64,000 nt of DNA from Streptococcus pyogenes (GTDB taxonomy: Bacteria; Bacillota; Bacilli; Lactobacillales; Streptococcaceae). The translations under genes were made by a program, and so were the position numbers. The first letter of the stretch is position 1. Each line of letters begins with the position of its first letter. Below, one piece after another: positions 10,617 through 22,855 of this stretch. The stretch covers positions 868,001-932,000 of the forward strand of contig NZ_LN831034.1 of the NCBI RefSeq assembly GCF_002055535.1, in the 5' to 3' direction. Below the pieces are notes generated by a model that saw nothing but the letters and a program-made list of their open reading frames with translations, was not told where the DNA came from and searched no databases.

Positions 10617-10680
10617 GTCGTCTCAGAGTAGCTTAAGGCTACGCTTAACATTTTAAATTAATTATTTGGAGGAAATCACA

Positions 10681-11046
10681 ATGGCATTGAACATTGAAAA
10701 CATTATTGCTGAAATTAAAGAAGCTTCAATCCTTGAGCTTAACGATCTTGTAAAAGCTATCGAAGAAGAATTTGGTGTAACTGCAGCTGCTCCTGTAGCT
10801 GCTGCAGCTGCTGGTGGTGCTGAAGAAGCTGCTAAAGATTCATTCGACGTTGAATTGACATCTGCTGGCGACAAAAAAGTTGGCGTTATCAAAGCTGTTC
10901 GTGAAATCACAGGTCTTGGTCTTAAAGAAGCTAAAGGTCTTGTTGATGGAGCACCTGCTAACGTTAAAGAAGGCGTTGCTGCTGCAGAAGCTGAAGAAAT
11001 CAAAGCTAAACTTGAAGAAGCTGGAGCAACAATCACTCTTAAATAA
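10681..11046 (+). CDS. rplL: 50S ribosomal protein L7/L12
   Basis: The 121-residue protein has the N-terminal dimerisation domain (residues 1-35) and an Ala-rich flexible hinge (about 38-55, with runs of alanine and AAGGAEEAA). The C-terminal domain binds translation factors ([22 protein letters not shown]). It is the mobile stalk protein that recruits GTPase factors. GGAGGA at 10668-10673 fits ATG 10681. The 3' end of rplL is a known integration target of streptococcal ICEs of the ICESa2603 type, and here decayed element genes begin about 200 bp downstream. Confidence 0.98.
11031..11046 (+). other. Putative ICE attachment site at the 3' end of rplL
   Basis: The last codons and stop of rplL contain CTCTTAAATAA (11036-11046), the core of the rplL target used by ICESa2603-type elements. 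No matching right-end copy was found near 21.4 kb, so the call depends on known target choice and the adjacent element genes. Confidence 0.35.
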
Positions 11047-11143
11047 GAAGCAGATAGCAATTTGAGAGCGAAATCCCGATTTATCAGTCTTTTAGAGTTT
11101 ATAGCGATTTGAAGAAACTGATAAATTGATTTGGTTTCTTGCC

Positions 11144-11183
11144 AAAAATCCTGCCCAAAAAATCTTTGGCAGGATTTTTATTT
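11144..11183 (+). terminator. Terminator of the rplJ-rplL operon
   Basis: AAAAATCCTGCC (11144-11155) pairs with GGCAGGATTTTT (11168-11179) and is followed by more T residues. It lies about 100 bp after the rplL stop. Confidence 0.88.
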
Positions 11184-11255
11184 TCTATAAAAATTAAGCT
11201 GAGTAGAGTGGTTATTCTATCTATATGTGTCTAGTAATAATTTTTTTATGTGAAC

Positions 11256-11288
11256 GAGAACATTTTAATAAGTGTTCTCATTTTTTTA
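11256..11288 (+). terminator. Hairpin with T-run before the repA remnant
   Basis: GAGAACA (11256-11262) pairs with TGTTCTC (11273-11279) and is followed by ATTTTTTT. It sits about 20 bp upstream of the repA start codon, so it could be an attenuator in the repA leader of the element. Confidence 0.65.
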
Positions 11289-11305
11289 TTTTCAGGAGGA
11301 AAATC

Positions 11306-11944
11306 ATGCAAATGAATGAACAGTCATCACGACAAATGGTGATTGCCATCTATCTCATTTATTCCAACTCAAAATGACAGTACTCCTTGGCTGTTCCAAG
11401 TCGAAATTGTTAGCGATTAAGAAAACCTACGAGACTATGGTTTGATCGATGAAGTCCAACAGTCTCCCAGTGAAAAAGGGCGTTTGGCTAATAAGATTTA
11501 TTTAGGAAAGTTGGAACATGATTTCACCCCAGTCTTCAGTTCAGACGGGGCCAGTCTCAAAAACAGACCAGCCCCGTGTTAAATTCAGCCCCTAATGAGA
11601 CTGAAAAGAGTGAAACTGAAGGTAGTGAAACTAAAGAGAGTAATTTAGTGATTGAGGACGAGGAGGAAAGAAAGGAGTGCACTAGTGTGAAAAAGACTGA
11701 GGGTCACTTTACCCGTCAAGTTGATCAGGTCACCAAATATGACAAAGATTATATTTGGAGTTTGGTTCATTCCCAATTACGTGAAGGTGGTTTATCACAA
11801 GCTGCTAGTGACTTAGTCATGAGCTATTTTGAAGAACGCTATGCTTATGCGCTGGAACACATACGGTTCGCAAGAACAGCTGAAGCTATTGCGGAATATG
11901 TCTTTAATGGTGTCTTATCCGAATGGACCAAGCAACTAAGGTGA
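11306..11944 (+). pseudogene. RepA-type replication initiator of an integrated element (degenerate)
   Basis: A good ribosome site (AGGAGG, 11294-11299) precedes ATG 11306, which begins MQMNEQSSRQMV, the usual start of RepA_N-like initiators of streptococcal ICEs. Most of the winged-helix domain is deleted. LIYSNSK is followed out of frame by LLGCSKSKLLAIKK, LIDEVQQS and EKGRLANKIYLGKLEHD, the recognisable DNA-binding region, broken by several frameshifts. From about 11576 the frame is open to TGA 11944 and encodes an intact C-terminal domain (residues like KYDKDYIWSLVHSQLREGG and YVFNGVLSEWTKQLR). The protein cannot be functional as a whole. Confidence 0.8.
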
Positions 11945-11964
11945 CAAGAAGCGAAGTGAGTAAG

Positions 11965-12060
11965 ATGTTTTGGTGGCTATTATTAGGTGTTTGGGGACTA
12001 AGGACAATTTGGTTGATTATTGAAGTTATCACTGCACCAGAAATGGAAGATTATAGTTGA
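11965..12060 (+). CDS. Small hydrophobic protein of the decayed element
   Basis: A 31-residue frame starts at ATG 11965 (in-frame GTGs at 11941 and 11956). It encodes one probable membrane segment, MFWWLLLGVWGLRTIWLII, followed by an acidic tail. It follows the repA remnant immediately and the GTG at 11941 overlaps its stop. It is the kind of small membrane gene often found after repA in ICEs. I recognise no named family. It may be a leftover without function. Confidence 0.45.
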   Translation: MFWWLLLGVWGLRTIWLIIEVITAPEMEDYS

Positions 12061-12062
12061 GT

Positions 12063-12098
12063 AAGGACGTTACATAAGCAGTAAGGTCCTTTTATTTT
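12063..12098 (+). terminator. Hairpin terminator between the repA block and methyltransferase remnant
   Basis: AAGGAC (12063-12068) pairs with GTCCTT (12086-12091), followed by a T-rich stretch. It sits three bases after the small frame and just before the methyltransferase start. Confidence 0.55.
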
Positions 12099-12118
12099 GT
12101 CAGAAAGGAATGAGAGAT

Positions 12119-12463
12119 ATGAAGTTTTTAGATTTGTTTGCAGGAATTGGAGGCTTTCGATTGGGTTTAATTAATCAGTGCCATGAGTGTATTGGCTTTT
12201 GTGAGATTGATAAGTTTGCGAGGCAATCTTACAAAGCCATCTATGAGACCGAAGGAGAAATAGAATTTCATGACATTAGACAAGTCACAGACCAAGACTT
12301 TAGACAACTTAGAGGGCAAGTGGATATCATCTGCGGTGGTTTTTCCCTTGTCAAGCATTTTCACTCGCAGGCAGACGACTGGGATTTGAGGGCACTAGGA
12401 GAACTCTCTTCTTTGAGATTACTCGAGCGACCAAACAGATAAAAATCATACCCATAATCACAT
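12119..12463 (+). pseudogene. DNA (cytosine-5)-methyltransferase, truncated and frameshifted
   Basis: The N-terminus is a textbook C5-methyltransferase start: LDLFAGIGGFRLGL is motif I (S-adenosylmethionine binding) and FCEIDKFARQSY is motif II. The frame fails exactly at motif IV. The expected GGFPCQ becomes GGF followed by SLVKHFH because of a two-base insertion (or one-base loss) near 12341-12347. The shifted frame still reads CQAFSLAGRRLGFEGTRRTLFFEI as far as about 12450, so the lesion is recent relative to overall decay. The target-recognition and C-terminal domains are deleted, and the gene is joined directly to relaxase sequence. ATG 12119 has AAAGGA upstream at 12104. Confidence 0.85.
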
Positions 12464-13927
12464 CCAATCAACGCCATTGACCGTAATTCAGATAAAAAAT
12501 TGATATGGAATTATGCCTTGGAACGAAACCTCCGTATGATTTCAGACCGTATTTCAAAAATGACTGGAGCAAAAATTATCGAGAAGCGTTATTCCTACCG
12601 TGACTATCAAAAATATAGGTAGTCTAGTCATAAATTTGAATTGAAACAACGTCTTTATTTTTTGATGCAGCAGTCAAAGTTCTTTGATGATTTTTTAGAA
12701 AAAGCAGAGTAATTACATGTTCATATTGATTTTAGTCAGAAGCATAGCAGATTCATGATGACGGATCGAGTAATGAAAAAACCAATTCGAGGCCGTCAAC
12801 TCAGTAAACGAGATTTATATGATGAAGAATTTTTTCGTACACATTTTGCCAAGATAGAAATTGAAAGTCGATTAGAATTTTTGTTGAACCGTGCCAATTC
12901 ATTAGAGGAGCTACTATTAAAAGCAAAAGAAGTGAATCTAACCATTGACTTAAAACAAAAAATGTAACTTTTATCCTAGAAGAAGATACTCAAAAGATAA
13001 GTTTAGGTCATAAAAAAATAAGCGATAAGAAATTATATGATGTCAATTTTTTCAAGATTACTTTAAAAATAAGGAAGTCGGTGTTTCAGATCGATTAGAA
13101 AGTCTACAGAAACAGTACATGCTTTTCAAGAAGAACGAGATAAAGAGGAGGTATCCACTGAAGAGAGTAAGGAAGTCTTCAAGAAATACAAGGGGCAACG
13201 AGATGCCATCCATGAGTTTGAAGTTGAACTTGTGGAACATCAAATTGAGAGGTTAATTGCTGAGGACATTTATATCAAGGTGTCTTTTAGTGTAAAGCAG
13301 AGTGGTCTTATTTTCATTCCTAACTATCAATTGGATATTAGGAAAGAAGAAAATCATAAAAAATATAAAGTCTATATTCGTGAGACCGCACAATTCTTCA
13401 TTTACAACAAGGAGGCGTCTGAACTTAATCGCTATATGCGAGGGCATGAGCTCATTTGCCAGTTAACCAATGATAGCAAGAGTATTCCAAAAAGAAGACG
13501 ACAAACCATTGATACACTTAAGAAAAAGATTGAAGAAATAAGTCTCCTCATTGAGTTAGATACGGAGAATAAGCCTTATCAAGATATTAAAGATGACATT
13601 GTTAAAGATATGGCTCAATTAGATTTGACCATTACAGAGTTGCAGGACCATATTGCTCATCTCAATAAGGTTGCGGAGGTCTTGCTTAATCTGAACAACA
13701 ACGATATAGAGAACCGCCGTTTGGCCAGATATGACTATGCCAAGATGAACTTGACTGCAGCTATAAAAATAGAAGAAGTTGAGAAAGAGATTGAAACTTC
13801 TCAAAATGAACTTAATATATCCATAGATGAGTATGAATATCTAGTAAGAAGGTTGGAAAAGTTTGGAGAGATCTTGAGTGATAGCAAAATTATCGATACT
13901 TCTCGAAATGAAATACAATGGGAGTAA
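12464..13927 (+). pseudogene. Conjugative relaxase of a streptococcal ICE (N-terminus deleted, several stops)
   Basis: Fragments in changing frames match the C-terminal two-thirds of the large relaxase found next to rplL-type streptococcal ICEs. They are INAIDRNSDKKLIWNYA and RISKMTGAKIIEKRY, stop, KFELKQRLYFLMQ, stop, HVHIDFSQKHSRFMMTDRV and YDEEFFRTHFAKIEIESRL. A frameshift in an A-run near 12958 follows, then VTFILEEDTQKISLGHKK, a further frameshift, and an open 231-residue tail from 13232 to TAA 13927 that is rich in coiled coil. The first two stops fit CAG or CAA changed to TAG or TAA. The catalytic tyrosine and metal-histidine domain is missing, so DNA transfer is lost. Confidence 0.75.
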
Positions 13928-14077
13928 TTATGATATAATTTGGGTGGTAGCAATTTTTATATCAGATATTAAAATCTAGTTGATGTTTCGTAAATAACTA
14001 TATTAAAGAAATGATTCCTGCCGCTTACATTAAGAATAGTTTATTTGTAAGTATTTCATTATTTAAAAGGGGTAATA

Positions 14078-14764
14078 ATGTATAAGATTTTAGCCATAGA
14101 TGATGATAAAGAAATTCTGAAGCTTATGAAGACTGCTTTGGAGATTGAAAATTATCATGTTATAACCTGTCAAGAGATAGAATTACCAATAGTTTTTGAT
14201 GATTTTAAAGGATATGATTTGATCTTATTGGATATCATGATGCCTAATATAAGTGGAACTGAGTTTTGTTATAAAATTCGGGAAGAAGTTCATTCTCCAA
14301 TTATTTTTGTTAGCGCTTTAGATGGCGATAATGAAATTGTCCAAGCTTTAAATATAGGGGGAGACGATTTTATTGTGAAACCATTTAGCTTAAAACAATT
14401 CGTAGCTAAAGTTAACTCTCATTTGAAGAGAGAAGAGAGAGCAAAGATAAAGAATGAGGCTGAGGAGAGAGTGAAGCGTAGTTTTCCACCTATAGAAATC
14501 TATCTAGAGGAACGTATGTTATATATTGATAAACAGCCGTTATTCCTGACTTATAGAGAGTACGAAATTTTAGAATTACTGTCACGTCATCCGTATAAAG
14601 TTTTCACAAAAGAAGAGATATATGAACAAGTATATAGCGATGAAGCTTCAGCATTGTTTCATTCTATTTCAGAATATATCTATCAGATTAGAATGAAATT
14701 TTCAAGTTTTGGAATTAATCCAATAAAAACTATTCGCGGGATTGGTTATAAATGGGATGTTTAA
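14078..14764 (+). CDS. srtR: Streptin locus response regulator (OmpR/NisR type)
   Basis: The 228-residue protein has a receiver domain (residues 1-118; acidic pocket IDDDK, phosphoacceptor Asp in LILLDIMMPN, Lys in IVKPFSLKQF). The C-terminal winged helix is of the OmpR class (TYREYEILELLSRHP, TIRGIGYKW). It is the regulator partner of SrtK, and by analogy with NisRK/SalKR it should activate the prepeptide and immunity promoters when the lantibiotic is sensed. RBS AAAAGGGG precedes ATG 14078, and the 3' end overlaps srtK by 8 bp. The DNA is noticeably more AT-rich than the housekeeping genes around it, in line with acquisition by transfer. Confidence 0.9.
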   Translation: MYKILAIDDDKEILKLMKTALEIENYHVITCQEIELPIVFDDFKGYDLILLDIMMPNISGTEFCYKIREEVHSPIIFVSALDGDNEIVQALNIGGDDFIVKPFSLKQFVAKVNSHLKREERAKIKNEAEERVKRSFPPIEIYLEERMLYIDKQPLFLTYREYEILELLSRHPYKVFTKEEIYEQVYSDEASALFHSISEYIYQIRMKFSSFGINPIKTIRGIGYKWDV

Positions 14765-16103
14765 AAAATATTCAATAAAAAATCGTGTTTGGCGCGCCGT
14801 CGTTGAAATTGTCTTTGGAGTTTGTATCACTGTTTTAATGATTGCGATAATATCGCTTTCTTTTTCAAAGTTAAATATAGTGACATCTCATAATGTGGGA
14901 GAAGAATTTTATATTAAAGATAAACAGTCAATCAAACAGTTGAACAATTATATGAAGACATTGGGATTAGATTATGTTGTTTTTGATAGAAAAACAGATA
15001 AAGCTATGGAAGGAAAATATTTATCTAAAGAATTTTCTTTATTTAACGAAGTTGCAGAAGAAAAAAATAATCTGACTTTTAATTCTGTACATTATGATTT
15101 ATATACTAATATCAATTATAATATTGTTATAAGATATAATGAGATACCGGAGTTCTCTAACCATTACCTTAGAAATGTTTCATATAACATGTTGACATTT
15201 TATATTCTGGGAATAGGAACGAGTATCAGCATTGTAGTTGCTTTAACACGGTTTGTAAAAGAAATTTCTTTGAATTTCAAGGAAATCAAGAAGTTAGCAA
15301 ATAAAATGGGGATAGAAGTCCTTTCTGAAAATGAAAATTATTCTAAAATAATCGAGTTTGATGATATACTTAGAACTTTACATATTAAAGGTGATAATTT
15401 GAAAAGTTTGATTGAGCGAGAAATATTGGAAAAGCAAGATCTATCCTTTCAAATTGCAGCACTTTCGCATGATATAAAAACACCTTTAACGGTTTTAAAA
15501 GGAAATCTTGAGTTATTAGAATTGACTACTTTAAATAAAAATCAGGAAGGTTATATTGTATCTATGAACAATAGTATTTCTGTTTTTGAAGGCTATTTCA
15601 ATTCTTTAATATCTTATACACGCATGCTTTCAGAGGATAGATCAGTGAAACTAATTTTAGTTGAGGAGCTATTAAGTGAGTTACATTTTGAAGTCGATGA
15701 CTTATTGAATATCAATAATATTGAATTTTCTATTTGTAATAGACTTATTATCACTTCTTTTTATGGAGATGAGGAAAATCTGATAAGAGCTCTTTCTAAC
15801 CTTTTAGTTAATGCAATAAGATTTATGCCCGTATTAGATAAAAAAATCGAAGTTATACTGTCTGAGTCAGGAGAGCAAATTCATTTTGAAATATGGAATA
15901 ATGGTGAGCGTTTCAGTGATAGTACACTGAAAAAGGGAGATAAATTATTTTACACGGAAGATTATAGCAGAGGTAACAAACATTATGGAATCGGTTTGGC
16001 ATTTGTTAAAGGCGTTGCTATCAAACACGGTGGGAATCTTCAATTGAATAATCCAGCTAGAGGAGGTGCTAGCGCCATAATCTCGATAAAAAAGAAAATT
16101 TAA
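14757..16103 (+). CDS. srtK: Streptin locus sensor histidine kinase
   Basis: The 448-residue membrane kinase has a first transmembrane segment at about residues 15-40, an extracellular sensing loop (about 41-140) and a second segment at about 147-170. The HisKA region carries the phosphorylated His in ALSHDIKTPLT. The ATPase domain has NLLVNAIRFMP (N box) and HYGIGLAFVKG (G box). It is the presumed sensor of extracellular streptin. ATG 14757 overlaps the srtR stop. An earlier TTG (14742) would also be in frame but lacks support. The gene appears intact although the biosynthetic genes downstream are lost. Confidence 0.9.
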   Translation: MFKKYSIKNRVWRAVVEIVFGVCITVLMIAIISLSFSKLNIVTSHNVGEEFYIKDKQSIKQLNNYMKTLGLDYVVFDRKTDKAMEGKYLSKEFSLFNEVAEEKNNLTFNSVHYDLYTNINYNIVIRYNEIPEFSNHYLRNVSYNMLTFYILGIGTSISIVVALTRFVKEISLNFKEIKKLANKMGIEVLSENENYSKIIEFDDILRTLHIKGDNLKSLIEREILEKQDLSFQIAALSHDIKTPLTVLKGNLELLELTTLNKNQEGYIVSMNNSISVFEGYFNSLISYTRMLSEDRSVKLILVEELLSELHFEVDDLLNINNIEFSICNRLIITSFYGDEENLIRALSNLLVNAIRFMPVLDKKIEVILSESGEQIHFEIWNNGERFSDSTLKKGDKLFYTEDYSRGNKHYGIGLAFVKGVAIKHGGNLQLNNPARGGASAIISIKKKI

Positions 16104-16168
16104 TAGATTTGATTGAAACTGGAGTATTTCAGGCAAAAAATCGTAAATTTTTGGCTAAAATACTTTTT

Positions 16169-16202
16169 TTCTGAACAAATTCTGAACTTGGGGTGTCATA
16201 AT
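16169..16202 (+). promoter_or_regulatory. srtA promoter with SrtR-type direct repeats
   Basis: TTCTGAAC occurs twice (16169-16176 and 16180-16187), 11 bp apart, that is one helical turn. CATAAT at 16197-16202 is a suitable -10. Lantibiotic promoters controlled by NisR/SalR-like regulators carry TCTGA-type repeats at this place, so this is a probable SrtR operator. Confidence 0.65.
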
Positions 16203-16250
16203 AATCATGTAAATATATCGGATGCAAAAACGTAAGAGAGGAACTAGAAA

Positions 16251-16391
16251 ATGAATAACACAATTAAAGACTTTGATCTCGATTTGAAAACAAATAAAAA
16301 AGACACTGCTACACCTTATGTTGGTAGCCGTTACCTATGTACCCCTGGTTCTTGTTGGAAATTAGTTTGCTTTACAACAACTGTTAAATAA
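16251..16391 (+). CDS. srtA: Streptin lantibiotic prepeptide
   Basis: The 46-codon gene has a leader with the class I FDLDL box (residues 8-12), recognised by the dehydratase. The core begins VGSRYLCTPGSCW and continues KLVCFTTTVK. The three Cys and several Ser/Thr are the precursors of lanthionine rings. The core is the known streptin peptide of S. pyogenes; two natural forms differ by an N-terminal TPY. GAGAGGAAC precedes ATG 16251. The gene is intact, but the dehydratase, cyclase and exporter needed to mature it are deleted here, so the product should remain an unmodified peptide. Confidence 0.93.
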   Translation: MNNTIKDFDLDLKTNKKDTATPYVGSRYLCTPGSCWKLVCFTTTVK

Positions 16392-16451
16392 TAAAGTTAT
16401 CATTATCATAAACATTATAATTTCAAATAATTTTATATATTTATAAATTTA

Positions 16452-16484
16452 GGGGAGTAGACTGATTTTAGTTTGCTCCTTTAT
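16452..16484 (+). terminator. Hairpin after srtA
   Basis: GGAG (16454-16457) with inner ACT pairs with AGT and CTCC (16476-16479), followed by TTTATT. Such a hairpin after a lantibiotic structural gene commonly limits read-through so that the prepeptide is made in excess. Confidence 0.6.
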
Positions 16485-16505
16485 TAGTAGATAAGGAAGT
16501 TATAC

Positions 16506-17200
16506 ATGATTAAAGCTCAGCTAAAGAATCTAATAAAAACAATTCATCTCGTAAAAGAGGCTGGTTTCTCCCTAAATGGTTCATTGTACATGGAGTTATT
16601 GCATGATTTTACGCATGATGAGTTAGTACATAACCCTATAATCGAAAGTACGGTTGATACAATTCAGTCAGTTGAATTTGAAAGGGTTTCTTTTTCATAT
16701 AATGGTAAGGATAATGTAATAAACGATATAAGTTTTTCAATTAAAGCAGGAGAGAGGTTAGCAATTGTTGGTGGAAATGGTTCTGGAAAAAGTACGATTT
16801 TCAAATTAGCCTGCGGTCTTTACGATAATTATGAAGGCAATATATATATAAATGGTATTAATCTTTGTTCAATACAGAAAAAGTCATACTACAAGAGAAT
16901 ATCCGCATTGTTCCAAGATTTTTTAAAGTATGAATTGACACTGCGTGAAAATGTTGGATTGGGTGAATTATCAAAGTTATATAGTGATGAGTCTTATAAT
17001 ACTTCATTTTTTACCACATCATGGGATTCAGAGAATGAACTGCGATTGGAGGATATTTATATAAGATATAGTGATGGTAAGTTTCATTTTACAACTATCG
17101 ATGAATCGATTAAACGGGATTGATAGAGAGTTTGAAGAGAAAGTGTATTGTTTTGCTTACTATACACTAAACGCTCAGCAATATATAGAATGGGAGTAAC
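16506..17200 (+). pseudogene. Chimeric deletion remnant of streptin exporter (srtT) and dehydratase (srtB)
   Basis: The frame from ATG 16506 begins in the middle of a LanT-type ABC exporter. It lacks the transmembrane helices but keeps the start of the ATPase domain: VEFERVSFSYNG, Walker A GGNGSGKST, and a Q-loop region LFQDFLKYELTLRENVGLG. After about residue 162 it changes into unrelated sequence, SWDSENELRLEDIYIRY, that resembles the middle of a LanB dehydratase. The frame stops at 17123. In another frame 17101-17200 reads MNRLNGIDREFEEKV and ends QYIEWE, like the LanB C-terminus. The signature motif and Walker B are gone, and no LanC cyclase remains. This is a collapsed biosynthetic block, not a working exporter. 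Confidence 0.75.
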
Positions 17201-17204
17201 TAAT

Positions 17205-17894
17205 ATGTTGAAAATACAAAATCTAAAAAAATCTTATGGTAAGAGAACCATATTGAATAATGTCAATATGAATATTCCTAAGGGAAAAGTGTATGCTTTA
17301 ATCGGTCCAAATGGTGCTGGAAAATCAACTATTATGAAAATTTTGACAGGCTTAGTTAGTAAGACAAGTGGTTCTATTATTTTTGAAGGTAGAGAATGGT
17401 CACGTCGGGATCTGCGAAAAATCGGGAGTATTATTGAAGAACCACCACTTTATAAAAATTTGAGTGCTTACGATAATATGAAGGTAGTTACAACAATGCT
17501 TGGTGTTTCAGAAAGCACTATACTTCCATTATTAAATAAAGTTGGTCTAGGAAATATTGACAAGAGACCAGTAAAACAATTTTCTCTTGGAATGAAGCAA
17601 CGGTTAGGTATAGCTATCTCTTTAATAAATTCACCTAAACTACTTATATTAGACGAACCTACTAATGGCTTGGACCCAATTGGAATTCAAGAATTAAGGG
17701 AAATTATAGAGTCATTTAAATCAGAAGGAATGACAATTATGATTTCAAGCCATATACTGTCAGAAGTTGAACATCTAGCTGATTTTATTGGATTTATCTA
17801 TGAAGGAAAGATTATTCTGGAAAAAGAATATGACGGCTCTGAGAATCTTGAAGAGTTATTCAATAATCAAATTTTATTTGAAAAGAGGAGGTAG
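17205..17894 (+). CDS. srtF: Lantibiotic immunity ABC transporter ATP-binding protein
   Basis: The 229-residue ATPase is complete: Walker A GPNGAGKST (about residue 35), signature FSLGMKQRL and Walker B LLILDEPTNGLDP. In place of the usual Q-loop it has SIIEEPPLYKN, the E-loop variant typical of LanF immunity ATPases. With SrtE and SrtG it would expel streptin from the membrane and protect the cell. ATG 17205 follows GGGAG, and longer readings start inside the upstream remnant. It is followed at 5 bp by srtE. Confidence 0.92.
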   Translation: MLKIQNLKKSYGKRTILNNVNMNIPKGKVYALIGPNGAGKSTIMKILTGLVSKTSGSIIFEGREWSRRDLRKIGSIIEEPPLYKNLSAYDNMKVVTTMLGVSESTILPLLNKVGLGNIDKRPVKQFSLGMKQRLGIAISLINSPKLLILDEPTNGLDPIGIQELREIIESFKSEGMTIMISSHILSEVEHLADFIGFIYEGKIILEKEYDGSENLEELFNNQILFEKRR

Positions 17895-17899
17895 GGGCT

Positions 17900-18649
17900 A
17901 TGGTACAAATTTTTTTATCAAATTTATTAAAAATAAAAAATACGAGTATTAGCAAGTTGATTCTTATTTTCCCTATTATTTGTGTGATGTTATCTTTATT
18001 GTTTTCAGCATTAGGTGGTGAAAATATCCTACGTTTAACTGCGGAAACAACAGTAAATCAGTGGGGAGTTATTTGGATTAATGTTATTATTGCTGTAAAT
18101 TCTGGTTTGTTAAATAAATTAGAATTAGATTCTAATAAGTATTCTGTTTTTTTATCAAGGGATGTTGATTTAAAAAAGGTAGAATATGCCAGAGTTCTAT
18201 TGATAGCTCTTATAAATCTAATAATTAGTATGATTTTAAGCTTAATGCTTATTGTAATTAGTTTTGTCCTACCTACTCCAAGTCTTATTAGTATAGGTAG
18301 GATACTATTAACTATCTTGTTAATTTGGTTGACTACACTATGGCAAATCCCGTTTATTTTATGGCTATCAAGAAAAATTAATGTGTATTTTGCTATGATT
18401 ATTAATATTATATCTCCACTAATTATTGGTACAAGTTTTTCTCTCTTAAATAAATGGTATTTGTTCCCTTATGATTGGTCGTTGAAGTTGCTTGAGCCAA
18501 TGACAAGAATGAGAATAAATAGTATACCTTTTGGAGCGGAGTTTGTTCCAGACTACTCACAGATTTTTATATCATTGTTCCTAGGAATTGCTTTTTTCAT
18601 CTTACTGACCAATCTATTTGCTATCTCTTTCAAAAAACAGGTGAAATAG
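17900..18649 (+). CDS. srtE: Lantibiotic immunity ABC transporter permease SrtE
   Basis: The 249-residue protein is strongly hydrophobic, with about six membrane segments (for example around residues 18-40, 55-75, 98-125, 137-160, 170-190 and 220-242). The pattern is that of LanE permeases of NisFEG-type systems. It lies between srtF and srtG with gaps of 5 and 2 bp, so the three form one translation unit. It works with SrtG as the membrane half of the immunity transporter. The gene appears undamaged, unlike the biosynthetic genes. Confidence 0.88.
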   Translation: MVQIFLSNLLKIKNTSISKLILIFPIICVMLSLLFSALGGENILRLTAETTVNQWGVIWINVIIAVNSGLLNKLELDSNKYSVFLSRDVDLKKVEYARVLLIALINLIISMILSLMLIVISFVLPTPSLISIGRILLTILLIWLTTLWQIPFILWLSRKINVYFAMIINIISPLIIGTSFSLLNKWYLFPYDWSLKLLEPMTRMRINSIPFGAEFVPDYSQIFISLFLGIAFFILLTNLFAISFKKQVK

Positions 18650-18651
18650 TC

Positions 18652-19374
18652 ATGAAATCATATTTATGTTCTAATTTTTTAAAAATCAAAAATACTTCAT
18701 ATTTACTAATACATATTTTAGCTGCACTATTATTTCCCTTACTTCTATTTTTCTATTGGAGTCAACGTGGAGGTTTACAAAGCAGGACTGTATTATTCTC
18801 CTACTTTCAAATAGTAGGTGTACTTCTTCCTTTTGTTGCAAGTATTGTGTGCATTCAACTAAAAAATTTGGAAGAATCATCTGGAAAATATAAATATTTA
18901 TTGGGTTACTCACAGTCGAATTATAAGCCATTTATTGTAGAATTAGTATTTCTATGGTTATGCTATTGTATAGTATTAATTATTTCAATTACTATATTTA
19001 TTCTTTTATTGAAAACTATTGGTATAAATGTATCTCTCAGACTACTTATTTTGAATAGTTTAATTTATATCATTTTTGCCTATGTAACCTATCTGATCAA
19101 TCATATTATTAGCTATATATTTAGTACAGGTGTGGCATTAGGTATTTCAATGGTAGGTGTTATTGCTGCAGCATTTTGTGAAACGAGCCTTGGTGATAAG
19201 GTATGGTTTCTTATTCCATGGGCATGGCTTTTAAGAATATCAGATACTCTATATAACCAACAGAAAATGGCAATTGTTCCACTTATTGTTATATTTTTTG
19301 TTTCATGCACAGTAGCTTTACTTCATATACGAATATTTAAAAGGTGGAATCAAGACTGTTTGACAAGTAGTTAA
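18652..19374 (+). CDS. srtG: Lantibiotic immunity ABC transporter permease SrtG
   Basis: The 240-residue membrane protein has about six hydrophobic helices and a short basic C-terminus. It is a LanG-type partner of SrtE. The start at ATG 18652 is two bases after the srtE stop. Its beginning, SNFLKIKNTSYL, mirrors that of SrtE (SNLLKIKNTSIS), suggesting that the two permeases arose by duplication. It is the last gene of the streptin block. No clear T-run terminator was seen directly after it. Confidence 0.86.
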   Translation: MKSYLCSNFLKIKNTSYLLIHILAALLFPLLLFFYWSQRGGLQSRTVLFSYFQIVGVLLPFVASIVCIQLKNLEESSGKYKYLLGYSQSNYKPFIVELVFLWLCYCIVLIISITIFILLLKTIGINVSLRLLILNSLIYIIFAYVTYLINHIISYIFSTGVALGISMVGVIAAAFCETSLGDKVWFLIPWAWLLRISDTLYNQQKMAIVPLIVIFFVSCTVALLHIRIFKRWNQDCLTSS

Positions 19375-19497
19375 ATACATCTATTTTGTTTACCTAGCAA
19401 TAAATATGATTTTTTAAGTTATAAATACTATCTAACTTGTTTAACTAAAAAATGACTATAAAATTTCAATGGATTACTAGCTTATATTTAATAGTCT

Positions 19498-19514
19498 TGT
19501 CCAAATAGGACAAT
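19498..19514. promoter_or_regulatory. Palindromic operator upstream of the XRE regulator
   Basis: TTGTCC (19498-19503) and GGACAA (19509-19514) form a perfect inverted repeat around AAATA. A -10-like TATACT is at 19542-19547 and the regulator starts at 19566. The position suits an operator, perhaps for the adjacent regulator itself. Confidence 0.5.
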
Positions 19515-19565
19515 TAAACATTTTTTAATCAAATCTCCTTTATACTGATATTAGGAGAATGTTAG

Positions 19566-19784
19566 ATGTATCCGCGTATTAGGAATTTGAGAGAAGATAA
19601 CGATTTCACTCAAAAGTTTGTTGCAAATTTACTTTCCTTCTCTCATGCAAATTATGCAAAAATTGAGAGAGGAGAGGTTGCCTTAATGGCAGATGTTCTT
19701 GTGCAGTTTTATAAACTCTATAACGTCAGTATTGATTATTTATTAGGGCAAACAGATTATCCGTATCGTTTTCATAATAAATAA
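19566..19784 (+). CDS. XRE-family (Cro/CI-like) transcriptional regulator
   Basis: The 72-residue protein is almost entirely one helix-turn-helix domain. It starts MYPRIRNLREDNDFTQKFVA and carries the typical YAKIERGEV recognition-helix end and DYLLGQTDY at the C-terminus. Such small repressors sit at the integrase end of many ICEs and control excision genes. AGGAGA lies 8 nt before ATG 19566. The frame is intact. It lies between the streptin genes and the DUF3173/integrase remnants. A GC-poor hairpin (AAGTCTCGCCT with AGGTGGGACTT, about 19786-19836) follows and may end its transcript. Confidence 0.85.
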   Translation: MYPRIRNLREDNDFTQKFVANLLSFSHANYAKIERGEVALMADVLVQFYKLYNVSIDYLLGQTDYPYRFHNK

Positions 19785-19981
19785 AAGTCTCGCCTTGATT
19801 TGTTCATTGACAACTGAATAAACCGAGGTGGGACTTTCTTGTTTGTCGAGCAATTTAGTGAGATACGCCGTGATAGGAGCGATAATTATTAGCTATAAAA
19901 TAGAGTGGTTCTCTATCTGCCATGACCACAAATAGGGACAATGATACTTCTGAACGTTCAGGCTGCCAGCGTAAAAGGCCA

Positions 19982-20023
19982 GTGGGTGAGATTCCCATGA
20001 GTGATTTAACCAGTCATACCCAC
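19982..20023 (+). other. Nested hairpin in the leader of the DUF3173-integrase block
   Basis: GTGGGT (19982-19987) pairs with ACCCAC (20018-20023). Inside, after a nine-base bulge, ATGA (19997-20000) pairs with TCAT (20014-20017) and TG pairs with CA. A T-run begins 11 nt further on. The 272-bp gap between the regulator and the DUF3173 remnant otherwise holds only an unconvincing frame from 19922. It could be an attenuator or a structured regulatory RNA of the element. Confidence 0.45.
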
Positions 20024-20056
20024 GGAGGTTGTAATTTTTTTGAAAGGAGTGGAGGT

Positions 20057-20272
20057 GTGAAAATAGTAACATATAAAAAGCTTGATGAATATTGGTTTTC
20101 TCGAACATACTGCAAGAAATATTATTAGAGAAGCAAAAAGAATAGCTATAAAAAAGTTGAAGAAGCTCGCGAACTTGAACAAAATGCGGTACAATTAAGT
20201 AAATCGCCCTTTGACAATAGAAGACTTGGTATTGCTCCTAAAGATGAAGAAAGTTTAGAAAGTGAGAATTAA
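20057..20272 (+). pseudogene. DUF3173-type small protein (recombination accessory), frameshifted
   Basis: GTG 20057 after GGAGG opens a frame that begins VKIVTYKKLDEYWFS. The expected continuation, EHTARNIIREAKRIAIKK, is present but in another frame. The original frame then resumes with VEEARELEQNAVQLSKSPF and NRRLGIAPKDEE, ending at TAA 20272. That means two compensating indels, plus an in-frame TAG in the unshifted reading. The pattern (short basic helix, then a RRLG.P tail) matches DUF3173 proteins, which sit just upstream of ICE integrases and are thought to assist excision. The stop is 2 bp before the integrase start. Confidence 0.65.
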
Positions 20273-20274
20273 AG

Positions 20275-21462
20275 ATGACTATAAAAAATCAAAAAAAGTA
20301 CAAAGGTGTTTATTGTGATAAGAATGGGAAGATATTTTATCAAGCTGATCTTGGTGTAGATCCAGTAACAGGTAAACGAGTTCAAAAGAAAGCCAGAAAG
20401 AATTAGTATGGAAAGCCATTTGGTACAATGAAAGAAGCGTATGATGAACTGGTTCGGATTAGGTATGGGTTTAGTAATAATCTTAGTATTGAAAATGACA
20501 ATATATCGTTTGAAAACTATATGAATACTATTTACCTAAGAGCATATAAGCAAAAGGTTCAGGCTGTAACTTATGAAATAGCCTTACCACATCATAAGTT
20601 ATTTATTCAGTATTTTGATTCTAAACTTTTAAAGGGAATAACAGCTTGAGATTGTGAATCTTTTAGTTTACATATTATTGAAAATTATGCAAAGAATTTA
20701 TGGTCGCGATTCAAAGATTGCATGGGGTATGCTGAAAGGTTAGACTATATTTCAAAAGTGCCATGTAAGGCTTTGGATAATCCTAAAGGGAAACATCCCG
20801 ACACTCCATTTTGGACTTATATTGAGTTTCAGAATTTTATAAAATCGTTTGATTTGCAAGATTATGAAGAGCTACAAAGATTTACAACTATTTGGCTATA
20901 TTATATGACAGGTGTTCGTGTAAGTGAAGGTTTATCATTATGATGGGAAAATATCGATTTCGAACAAAAATTCTTGAAAGTTCATACAACCTTGGAAAAG
21001 GATGAAAATGGAAATTGGTATCGTAAAGACCAAACAAAAACGCCAGCAGGAGAACGTCTTATTGAGTTAGATGATGTGACAATAGTAGTATTGGAAAATT
21101 GGAGAAGAAATCAAGTAGTCAATACTGACACAGATTTCATTATTTCACGGTTTGGTGAACCATTTTGTAAATCAACGATTTGTCGAGTTATTAAGCACAA
21201 AGCTCAAAGTATTGGAGTTCCCGTAATAACTGGAAAAGGATTGCGACATAGTTATGCTTCCTATCTTATTAATGTTTTGAAAAAAGACATTCTGTACGTT
21301 GCAAAGTGTATGGGACATGCTGATAAGTCTACAACTTTGAATACATATAGTCACTGATTTAATGCATTAGATAAAACAGTATCTGAAGAAATAACCCAAA
21401 ATGTAATAAGTTCAGGATTAGATTCCATTTTATACCAAAATTCCTGCCAAATAACTAATTGA
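20275..21462 (+). pseudogene. Tyrosine recombinase/integrase of the element, four in-frame stops
   Basis: A single frame of 395 codons runs from ATG 20275 to TGA 21462 with internal stops at 20404 (TAG), 20647, 20941 and 21355 (all TGA). It begins with an Arm-DNA-binding region (YKGVYCDKNGKIFYQADLG), then a SAM-like core (WTYIEFQNFIKSFD). The catalytic domain has TGVRVSEGLSL (Arg I), GKGLRHSYASYL (HxxR), GHADKSTTLNTYSH and then the stop where the family usually has a residue before FNALDKT. There are no frameshifts. Each stop can be explained by one C-to-T or G-to-A change. No copy can be made whole, so the element is immobile by itself. Confidence 0.88.
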
Positions 21463-21607
21463 TATAACGAAGCTTATTATATCGCCCATATAACAGGATG
21501 TGTTATTGTTACAGGGTACTTGCTTTATGAGCTTGTTTAAGCTACTAAAGGTGTGTGCCACTATACTTCCTTCCAAATTTCTGAGAATTTTTGTTATAAT
21601 AGTAACT

Positions 21608-22855
21608 ATGAAAGATATAATGATAAAAAGGTGGGTTATCCTTTTTTTTATGGTATTAACTTGTTCAGGGTTTGGTAAAACAGTTCTCGCAGCTGATTTT
21701 CAAGTGGGAGCAGAACATGCGATTGTCGTAGAGGCAGACTCTGGGAGAGTTCTGTATGAGAAAGACGCTAAGACGCCAGATGCTATTGCCTCTTTGACCA
21801 AATTGGTGACGGCTTATCTGGTTTTAGATAAGGTTAAATCAGGCCAGCTGCAATTATCAGATCAAGTTAATCTCTCAGATTATGCCTTCGAGTTAACAAA
21901 AGATAGGTCTTTAAGTAATGTACCTTTTGACAAAAAAACTTATTCAGTTCAAGACCTGTTGACAGCTACTTTGGTAGCAAGCTCAAATAGCGCTGCTATT
22001 GCGTTAGCCGAAAAAGTGGCGGGCTCAGAGCTTCATTTTGTAAATCAAATGAGAGAACAGCTATCTCATTGGGGGATTACTTCTGGTAAAATCCTCAACG
22101 CTTCAGGACTGCCGAATGAGGTGCTAAAGGACCATCGTTATCCTGGTTCTGCGTTGGAAGAAGAGAATATGTTGAGTGCTCAGGATGTTGCCATTGTGAC
22201 GATGCATTTACTGGAAGATTTTCCTGAGATTTTAGAGATCACTAAACAAACAGAAGTTGATTTTGCTGGTAATTCTATTAAAAGTTTTAATCAACTCTTA
22301 CCAGGTATGGCTAAGGGTAGAGCAGGAGTGGATGGGCTAAAGACAGGAACGACAGATTTGGCAGGTCATTGCCTTGTGGTAACTTCTATTGAAAATGGTA
22401 TGAGGCTGATTACCGTTATTCTAAATGCTGATGGATCTGATAAAAACCAAAACACGCGGTTTGAGCAAGCAAATCGCTTGTTGGACTATGTGGCTAGAAC
22501 TTATTGTCGTCGTAAGATTCTTAAAAAAGGAAGTCTTGTCTCGGAGCGATCGCTCCCTATTCAAGATGGCCAAGTAAAAGAACTACCGATATCTGTTGCC
22601 GAAGATGTAACCATCATTTTGCAACAGGGTGAACAAGTTCCCAAACCTAAACAATTTATGATATCAGAGACTTCTTTATTAGCACCGATTACTAAAGGTG
22701 AAGTGGTTGCTTATTTGACGTCTCCAAGAATAACAGATCAGTCAGTGAGGTATTTAAAGGAACCTAAGCGTATTCCTCTTAAAGCTAGCCAATCTCTAAA
22801 AAAAGCCTCTGACTTACAGCTGTGGTGGCGAGATTTTCTTGAAAAAAGACGTTAA
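21608..22855 (+). CDS. dacA: D-alanyl-D-alanine carboxypeptidase (low-molecular-mass PBP, DacA type)
   Basis: The 415-residue protein has a signal peptide ending in VLAADF. The penicillin-binding catalytic triad follows: SLTK (active-site Ser, about residue 65), SSNSA and LKTGTTD. A beta-rich C-terminal domain and an amphipathic tail (DLQLWWRDFLEKRR) would anchor it to the outer membrane face. It trims the terminal D-Ala from peptidoglycan stem peptides. The start is uncertain. TATAAT at 21595-21600 lies just before ATG 21608, so ATG 21620 with a short leader is also plausible. It is the first chromosomal gene after the decayed element. Confidence 0.88.
   Translation: MKDIMIKRWVILFFMVLTCSGFGKTVLAADFQVGAEHAIVVEADSGRVLYEKDAKTPDAIASLTKLVTAYLVLDKVKSGQLQLSDQVNLSDYAFELTKDRSLSNVPFDKKTYSVQDLLTATLVASSNSAAIALAEKVAGSELHFVNQMREQLSHWGITSGKILNASGLPNEVLKDHRYPGSALEEENMLSAQDVAIVTMHLLEDFPEILEITKQTEVDFAGNSIKSFNQLLPGMAKGRAGVDGLKTGTTDLAGHCLVVTSIENGMRLITVILNADGSDKNQNTRFEQANRLLDYVARTYCRRKILKKGSLVSERSLPIQDGQVKELPISVAEDVTIILQQGEQVPKPKQFMISETSLLAPITKGEVVAYLTSPRITDQSVRYLKEPKRIPLKASQSLKKASDLQLWWRDFLEKRR

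What the first reader, a model, noticed from the sequence alone, without database searches (positions are those of the whole stretch)
11250..21462. Streptin locus as cargo of a decayed ICE seated behind rplL
Left of srt: repA, small membrane gene, C5-methyltransferase and relaxase remnants. Right: XRE repressor, DUF3173 and integrase remnants. This is the order expected of an ICESa2603-like element inserted at the rplL 3' end, with the lantibiotic genes between relaxase and integrase modules. It suggests streptin arrived by conjugation and was stranded when the element decayed. Known: rplL is an ICE target. Seen: the gene fragments. Inferred: that all fragments belong to one element.
Basis: partly seen in the sequence, partly recalled or inferred. 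Interest (0 to 1): 0.7.

Follow-up and report, generated by a model that had tools for sequence, protein, structure and literature searches.

The report
Decayed conjugative element carrying broken streptin
Behind a ribosomal-protein gene, this Streptococcus pyogenes chromosome keeps the worn-down ends of a known kind of conjugative element with a partly deleted streptin (antibacterial peptide) gene cluster between them; the locus is already published, but the gene called streptin's 'immunity gene' srtI looks like the tail of the element's own transfer enzyme.

Summary
The remnants belong to one ICESa2603/Tn5252-type element: at least four genomes hold rplL junction, repA, relaxase and integrase end in the same order and orientation on one contig. 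The element runs from the 15-bp att at the rplL 3' end (11032-11046) to 21512. Fuller relatives carry a second att core exactly there; here it is gone, and about 190 nt of native flank are missing too.

Streptin sits between relaxase and integrase module, a published cargo hotspot. This copy also lost 5.3 kb of srtT-srtC-srtB; srtR, K, A, F, E, G stay open.

Not found in print by my searches: srtI, cited as streptin's immunity gene, is the relaxase C-terminus. Four streptin clusters outside S. pyogenes (S. merionis chromosome, three megaplasmids; two of the four complete) have no srtI beside them. Streptin is thus not bound to ICEs; its arrival by conjugation remains inference.

The parts
10666..11046 (+). 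rplL (L7/L12); its 3' end is the insertion site
   Evidence: ORF; blocks covering rplL are 84-93% identical in G142, G174, G177 and G181
11032..11046 (+). left att site (15 bp) inside the rplL 3' end
   Evidence: only exact copy in the window, both strands; reverse complement equals the att listed for ICESdy12394-1 in PMC4735348
11038..11182 (+). element left-end noncoding segment with a terminator-like hairpin; scores as Rfam rli38
   Evidence: RF01470, 77.1 bits against cut-off 49; also in 4 of 4 rplL-junction loci scanned
11306..11944 (+). repA fragments (RepA_N type), with an internal deletion of about 307 bp
11923..12060 (+). small ORF
   Evidence: inside the block 11360-12440 that is 79-80% identical in relatives
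12110..12442 (+). C5-methyltransferase N-terminus, cut by a deletion of about 14.5 kb relative to G142
   Evidence: PF00145; seam compared with L062
12432..13927 (+). relaxase remnant (SAG1250 family), N-terminus deleted, interrupted by stops
   Evidence: NF040665, positions 135-605; 85% DNA identity to G142 over 12432-13614
13232..13927 (+). 'srtI' ORF (231 aa): C-terminal part of the relaxase; its last ~20 residues lie in the junction range and are variable among relaxases
   Evidence: PF11083 Relaxase_C 1.7e-37 and PF20874 Relaxase_M 2.3e-27; NF040665 1e-89; alignment with full-length relaxases
13866..13930 (+). left junction between ICE backbone and streptin cassette (range)
   Evidence: relaxase similarity ends at 13865 in L064, L066, L068; S. 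merionis srt upstream similarity begins about 13900
14078..14764 (+). srtR response regulator, open
14742..16103 (+). srtK histidine kinase, open
16251..16391 (+). srtA streptin precursor, open, identical to the published 46-aa sequence
   Evidence: against the table in PMC4162386
16506..17001 (+). srtT fragments
   Evidence: internal deletion of about 858 bp against L061/L083
16980..17204 (+). srtB fragments; srtC and most of srtB deleted
   Evidence: deletions of about 3176 and 1274 bp against L061/L083
17148..17894 (+). srtF immunity transporter ATPase, open
   Evidence: TIGR03740 2.5e-110
17900..18649 (+). srtE immunity permease, open
   Evidence: TIGR03732 7.5e-74
18652..19374 (+). srtG immunity permease, open
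   Evidence: TIGR03733 6.8e-74
19480..19497 (+). right junction between streptin cassette and ICE integration module (range)
   Evidence: S. merionis srt similarity ends at 19479; ICE similarity begins at 19497 in L081 and 19498 in L077
19566..19784 (+). XRE regulator, open
   Evidence: PF12844/PF01381; 77.8% to G142
19938..20000 (+). pemK RNA motif in the conserved noncoding stretch before DUF3173
   Evidence: RF02913, 48.0 bits against cut-off 34.8; in 8 of 8 right-module loci scanned
20050..20270 (+). DUF3173 gene spread over two frames
   Evidence: three-frame translation compared with L063
20275..21357 (+). tyrosine integrase in four ORF pieces
   Evidence: PF00589 on the last piece; 87-90% aa identity over 127 aa to full-length integrases in L063, L064, L067, L071
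21508..21512 (+). last element bases before the missing second att core
21513..21607 (+). shortened native intergenic flank before dacA
   Evidence: aligned with the G174 right flank, about 190 nt missing

Best explanation
An ICESa2603/Tn5252-type ICE integrated at the rplL 3' end of an S. pyogenes ancestor. It carried, or gained in its cargo slot between relaxase and XRE-DUF3173-integrase, a nine-gene streptin cassette (srtRKATCBFEG). It then decayed in place: one deletion joined methyltransferase to relaxase and removed the conjugation genes, a small deletion hit repA, stops entered relaxase and integrase, and the second att core was lost. The element can no longer excise or transfer itself. 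In this lineage three further deletions removed the peptide's modification and export genes, leaving sensor, precursor and immunity transporter: an immune non-producer. The relaxase's surviving C-terminal frame beside srtR is what has been called srtI. Shown: anatomy, collinearity, boundaries, identity of srtI, streptin clusters without srtI. Inferred: conjugative arrival, order of events, immobility, current immunity.
For: Four of 197 genomes hold all four backbone blocks in order on one contig: G142 (27 kb), G174 (61 kb), G181 (59 kb), G050 (62 kb) (the match listing was truncated, so a lower bound; XRE is matched at DNA level in G142 and G174 but not in G181 and G050). The stretch present in G142 and absent here holds a T4SS coupling protein, VirB4-like and VirB6-like proteins and a lysozyme/CHAP protein; the whole own genome has no match to the VirB4-like protein of G174 (run without a positive control). 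Block ends and the att seam. G174 has an element between the same two genes, rplL and dacA, with its second att core. Relaxase family and stops. Streptin cassette limits. The srt deletions sum to 5308-5311 bp, as the published 17.5 minus 12.2 kb (table). Cargo slot HS-1 and nisin remnants there. Lantibiotic genes in that slot in L064/L098 (S. gallinaceus), L066, L068 and L062/L063.
Against: No intact ICE with srt was found. srt lives elsewhere without ICE genes, so the cassette could have entered an already resident ICE. dS between this srtF and two outside clusters is 0.5-0.6: neither is the recent donor. The relatives are not all whole either: the relaxase of G142 is in two frames. Only one S. 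pyogenes genome could be read here; other strains are taken from papers.
Confidence: 0.9

Rival explanations
1. The streptin cassette entered S. pyogenes separately (for example by transformation or from a plasmid) and recombined into an ICE remnant already sitting at rplL; conjugation of the ICE did not bring it.
For: srt clusters occur on the S. merionis chromosome between a phosphatase-like and an alanine-dehydrogenase-like gene (gene names by eye) and on three megaplasmids, all without an ICE relaxase beside them. No srt-bearing intact ICE found.
Against: The cassette lies in the family's known cargo hotspot HS-1, where other ICEs carry other lantibiotic clusters.
Confidence: 0.3
2. Left and right remnants are from different elements that inserted next to each other.
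For: Relaxase remnant is a mosaic: 12432-13614 is nearest G142, 13313-13865 nearest L064/L066.
Against: Same order and orientation in four relatives; one att at the left and one element end at the right; no att core at either cassette junction (the only other copy of the 10-bp core in the window, both strands, is at 18444 inside srtE). A relaxase mosaic is expected from recombination between ICEs.
Confidence: 0.04
3. srtI is a real streptin immunity protein that happens to share a domain with relaxases, or a relaxase stub co-opted for immunity.
For: The 231-aa frame is open here and in a protein cluster of 162 member sequences at 99% (P0002); reviews cite srtI as immunity gene (passages).
Against: It aligns over nearly its length with the C-terminus of full relaxases, and the sequence upstream is the rest of the relaxase. 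It has no NisI/SpaI match, whereas ICE-borne nisin-type clusters have a NisI/SpaI lipoprotein. It is absent beside 4 of 4 streptin clusters outside S. pyogenes. No Shine-Dalgarno at useful distance before either likely start, by eye. dN/dS against L066 is 0.22, between the 0.12 and 0.31 of two relaxase pairs: inconclusive.
Confidence: 0.07

Closest known systems
Streptin production ICE-like region, 370-RD.1/5005-RD.1 (M1) and 10270-RD.1 etc. (Beres & Musser 2007, PMC1949102; passages read)
   Same: Same site (rplL-dacA), same order, an about 200 nt flank deletion, short M1 form by internal deletions
   Different: The passages read do not name the ICE family, the att seam, the cargo slot or the nature of srtI
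dICE at rplL in S. pyogenes (Huang et al. 2016, PMC5053989; passages read)
   Same: Classes 10270-RD.1/10750-RD.1 as defective ICE at rplL with relaxase and recombinase, no conjugation module
   Different: No streptin gene analysis in the passages read; it lists PF11083 as 'Streptin-Immun' domain of relaxases
ICESa2603 family ICEs (PMC4735348; passages read)
   Same: rplL 3' end att, SAG1250-type relaxase, int/xis end, HS-1 cargo slot, remnant nisin genes in HS-1 of some members
   Different: Here T4SS and most other core genes and the second att core are absent
Suicin-bearing Tn5252 ICEs at rplL in S. suis (PMC7168690; passages read)
   Same: Lantibiotic cluster as cargo of an rplL ICE
   Different: Those carry suicins, not streptin, on ICEs with conjugation modules
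Streptin clusters of S. merionis (G021, L061) and megaplasmids CP020439.2, NZ_MN480763.1, NZ_CP020429.2
   Same: srtRKATCBFEG order; 77-87% DNA identity for L061, L082, L083, 85% over one stretch for NZ_CP020429.2
   Different: srtT, srtC and srtB present, no srtI, no ICE relaxase beside them. Complete in L061 and CP020439.2; in NZ_MN480763.1 srtT and srtB are annotated in two pieces each, in NZ_CP020429.2 no SrtA match was found

Membership tests
ICESa2603 family ICE (functional) | insertion at rplL 3' end with the 15-bp att | tested here: met
   11032-11046 equals the ICESdy12394-1 att in reverse complement
ICESa2603 family ICE (functional) | integrase related to IntICESa2603 (>60%) | tested here: inconclusive
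   Last integrase piece 87-90% aa identical to full-length integrases beside the same att; IntICESa2603 itself was not held or compared; here the gene is in four ORF pieces
ICESa2603 family ICE (functional) | SAG1250-type relaxase | tested here: met
   NF040665 641.7 bits over positions 135-605 (cut-off 575), but N-terminus lost and 9 stops: family met, function not
ICESa2603 family ICE (functional) | syntenic core with T4SS | tested here: not met
   About 14.5 kb present in L062, with coupling protein, VirB4-like and VirB6-like genes, is absent
ICESa2603 family ICE (functional) | second att copy at the far end | tested here: not met
   Absent at 21513; best 15-mer match in 21300-21900 is 10 of 15
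defective ICE (dICE) of that family | site and partial relaxase/integrase kept, conjugation module lost | tested here: met
streptin locus | SrtA precursor | tested here: met
   identical to the sequence printed in PMC4162386
streptin locus | complete srtT, srtC, srtB | tested here: not met
LanI lantibiotic immunity protein (srtI) | NisI/SpaI-type lipoprotein | tested here: not met
   best models are relaxase models, no NisI/SpaI match; L064 and L066 LanI hit NF033433 and PF18218
LanI lantibiotic immunity protein (srtI) | confers self-protection | not testable with these tools
   needs a deletion and sensitivity assay

The most novel reading that the evidence does not exclude
srtI was never an immunity gene: it is the tail of a conjugative relaxase stranded beside srtR. 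The Pfam family once called 'Lantibiotic streptin immunity' (PF11083) carried the error onto ICE relaxases, and streptin protection rests on srtFEG alone. S. pyogenes of this type would then carry an immune non-producer locus within a dead ICE.
Probability: 0.85. Interest if true: 0.5.

Novelty: already known. Interest (0 to 1): 0.36.

Why it matters
The locus itself is a published, ordinary case of a decayed ICE with bacteriocin cargo. What it adds is a correction: reviews of 2014 and 2021 list srtI as a streptin immunity gene (passages), while sequence, domain and context evidence says it is a relaxase fragment. That changes how streptin immunity should be assayed and how relaxases bearing this domain are named. 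The seams also order the losses: the three srt deletions equal the published size difference between the M1 form and that of other serotypes, so they fit losses that came after the ICE had died.

Tried and rejected
Phage records: one record, a 222-nt match in the conserved noncoding stretch only. Viral-contig scans with SrtK and SrtB gave no locus. The integrase scan gave six loci, of which the one near relative (L108) has no srt gene; the five at 23-27% identity were not examined. Repeat listings over the region (truncated by the tool) and pattern checks showed no second att copy and nothing like paired ends around the srt cassette. A short-repeat origin of the deletions looked attractive because BLAST segments overlap by 7-22 nt at four seams, but base-level comparison, by eye, leaves only about 3-5 shared bases at most seams, so I claim no mechanism. 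dN/dS: integrase pairs with the window 0.05-0.12 against 0.03-0.06 between full-length copies, and XRE 0.18-0.30 against about 0.10, suggestive of relaxed constraint; SrtI inconclusive; srtR, K, F, E, G like the pairs between outside clusters; saturated pairs gave no ratio.
Full report
What is there. The window is bases 868001-932000 of a single-contig genome of 1,914,862 bp. It encodes the 46-aa streptin precursor exactly as printed in a review, so I take it as S. pyogenes. Between rplL (stop at 11046) and dacA lie 10.5 kb. G+C is 28-32% over srt (14.0-19.5 kb), about 32-41% over the flanking remnants and mostly 36-44% around them. In order: repA fragments, a small ORF, a methyltransferase N-terminus, a relaxase remnant, srtR, srtK, srtA, pieces of srtT and srtB, srtF, srtE, srtG, an XRE gene, DUF3173 pieces and integrase pieces.

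One element. I searched 197 Streptococcus genomes, one per species, with the right block (19540-21500) and the left block (11060-13930): 93 of 197 and 127 of 197 matched somewhere. In G142, G174, G181 and G050 the rplL junction, repA, relaxase and integrase end lie in the same order and orientation on one contig, spanning 27 to 62 kb (the listing was truncated, so four is a lower bound; XRE is matched at DNA level in G142 and G174 only). Outside rplL the blocks of G142, G174 and G181 are about 77-86% identical. Relative to G142 the window lacks about 307 bp inside repA and about 14.5 kb between methyltransferase and relaxase. In G142 that stretch encodes a T4SS coupling protein, VirB6-like and VirB4-like proteins and a lysozyme/CHAP protein; G174 has the coupling, VirB4-like and lysozyme/CHAP proteins too. 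A search of the own genome with the G174 VirB4-like protein found nothing, without a positive control in that call. The relaxase matches the NCBI model named for SAG1250, the ICESa2603 relaxase, at positions 135-605 with nine stops. Not every relative is whole: the relaxase of G142 is in two frames.

Ends. Left: the last 15 bases of rplL equal, in reverse complement, the att listed for ICESdy12394-1. Right: of 11 fetched loci with a right-block match, 8 reach the end; similarity stops at 21512 in 7 of them (L063, L064, L067, L071, L073, L075, L081) and at 21513 in L077. In all 8 the att core follows directly, with one different base in L077. In the window the core is missing and the sequence goes on with a stretch like the native flank of G174. 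A further ~190 nt of flank are absent by that alignment, which fits the ~200 nt loss reported by Beres and Musser. No other exact att copy exists in the window on either strand. That the element cannot excise is inference from this.

Streptin cassette. Against S. merionis (G021, named through its identical LanB protein P0139) the srt homology spans 13900-19479, against two megaplasmids 14068-19387/19406. Relaxase homology ends at 13865 and the right module begins at 19497. The passages of PMC4735348 place hotspot HS-1 on the integrase side of SAG1250, with regulatory gene SAG1249 in it and remnant nisin genes in four members; that the XRE gene here corresponds to SAG1249 is my inference. In related elements this slot holds other lantibiotic genes. 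L064 (taken as the same contig as L098, S. gallinaceus, by length and content) and L066 have LanR, K, F, E, a gallidermin-type precursor, LanB, LanT, LanC (in two frames in L066) and a NisI/SpaI-type gene; in L066 the ORF after the relaxase is a subtilase. L068 has a similar cluster without a precursor match. G142 has an SA-FF22-like precursor with transporter genes and no full-length LanM that I saw (by eye). Of 18 integrase loci fetched I examined the 13 near ones, within 10 kb upstream at most: 7 have the relaxase directly upstream and no lantibiotic gene between (L100-L103, L105, L106, L108), 1 the nisin-type cluster (L098), 2 LanRK-like genes (L104, L107), 3 none (L096, L097, L099). Lantibiotics in rplL ICEs are published.

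The streptin genes of this copy. Relative to L061/L083, three deletions of 858/859, 3176/3178 and 1274 bp remove most of srtT, all of srtC and most of srtB. Their sum, 5.31 kb, equals the difference between 17.5 kb (three of the other-serotype rows; a fourth says 17.6; a fifth, 9429-RD.1, prints 63.0, apparently swapped, and I left it out) and 12.2 kb (both M1 rows) in the table; the text there says ~15 and ~10 kb. So these losses are probably specific to the M1 form. srtR, K, A, F, E and G are open. The same paper says M1 strains do not give the inhibition profile of streptin producers (passage).

srtI. The published gene order starts srtI-srtR (passage). The only long + strand frame directly before srtR is 13232-13927. 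It matches Relaxase_C and Relaxase_M in Pfam and the SAG1250 relaxase in NCBIfam, and aligns with the C-termini of 627- and 626-aa relaxases; its last ~20 residues are variable among relaxases and could partly come from the cassette. PF11083 was called 'Lantibiotic streptin immunity' or 'Streptin-Immun' in two 2016 papers that found it on relaxases; the Pfam copy used here calls it a relaxase domain. A homologue named 'lantibiotic (srt) production protein' by one source and 'relaxase' by another shows the confusion (P0018). Streptin clusters outside S. pyogenes lack it: next to srtR in S. merionis lies an alanine-dehydrogenase-like gene, and that genome has no SAG1250 relaxase match. Of three plasmid records, two have no PF11083 match and one has two short pieces more than 80 kb away from srt. 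Full-text searches for srtI with streptin (2 papers) and for PF11083 (1 paper) listed no paper on srtI as a relaxase piece (I read passages of these three, not the whole texts); the 2003 paper that described streptin is not held, and the 2001 paper was not looked up.

How common is srt. SrtA was found in 2 of 284 Streptococcus species genomes, this one and G021, in 3 plasmid records of which 2 are streptococcal, and in 17 proteins of the large protein collection, the species' own included, one named S. agalactiae. P0132 is SrtA running into the last residues of SrtB, which suggests a separate loss of biosynthesis elsewhere.

Judgement. Arrival by conjugation is likely, not shown. The correction of srtI is the part worth carrying on.

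Noticed in passing
window 19785-20065 (pemK hit 19938-20000): A noncoding stretch of about 230 nt between XRE and DUF3173 is matched on its own in many of the genomes. It holds Rfam pemK RNA (RF02913) in 8 of 8 right-module loci scanned, including L066 with a serine recombinase. An alignment of 12 gives 53 predicted pairs, 6 with a two-sided change, but the window copy alone folds little better than shuffles (z -1.63). It may be a regulatory RNA of ICE excision.
   Followed up: partly
window 11038-11182: The element's left end scores as the Listeria sRNA rli38 (RF01470), starting inside the att repeat and ending in a terminator-like hairpin. It is found at 4 of 4 rplL junctions scanned and at the far att of G181. 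rli38 may be an ICE end that supplies rplL with a terminator.
   Followed up: partly
L067 3708-5339 (G177): Another rplL element with losses: methyltransferase and relaxase C-terminus fused into one 543-aa frame, with full-length integrase and att core. Its seam seems to differ from that of the window, so this kind of loss may have happened more than once.
   Followed up: no
P0132, P0147 (protein clusters): P0132 is SrtA fused to the end of SrtB; P0147 joins a Rep_trans domain to a LanB N-terminal part close to SrtB, hinting at streptin beside another kind of mobile element.
   Followed up: no
L073 8029-8185 (G181): The far att of this ICE is followed by a second copy of the rplL-side left-end sequence, as in tandem insertions or a former neighbour element.
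   Followed up: no
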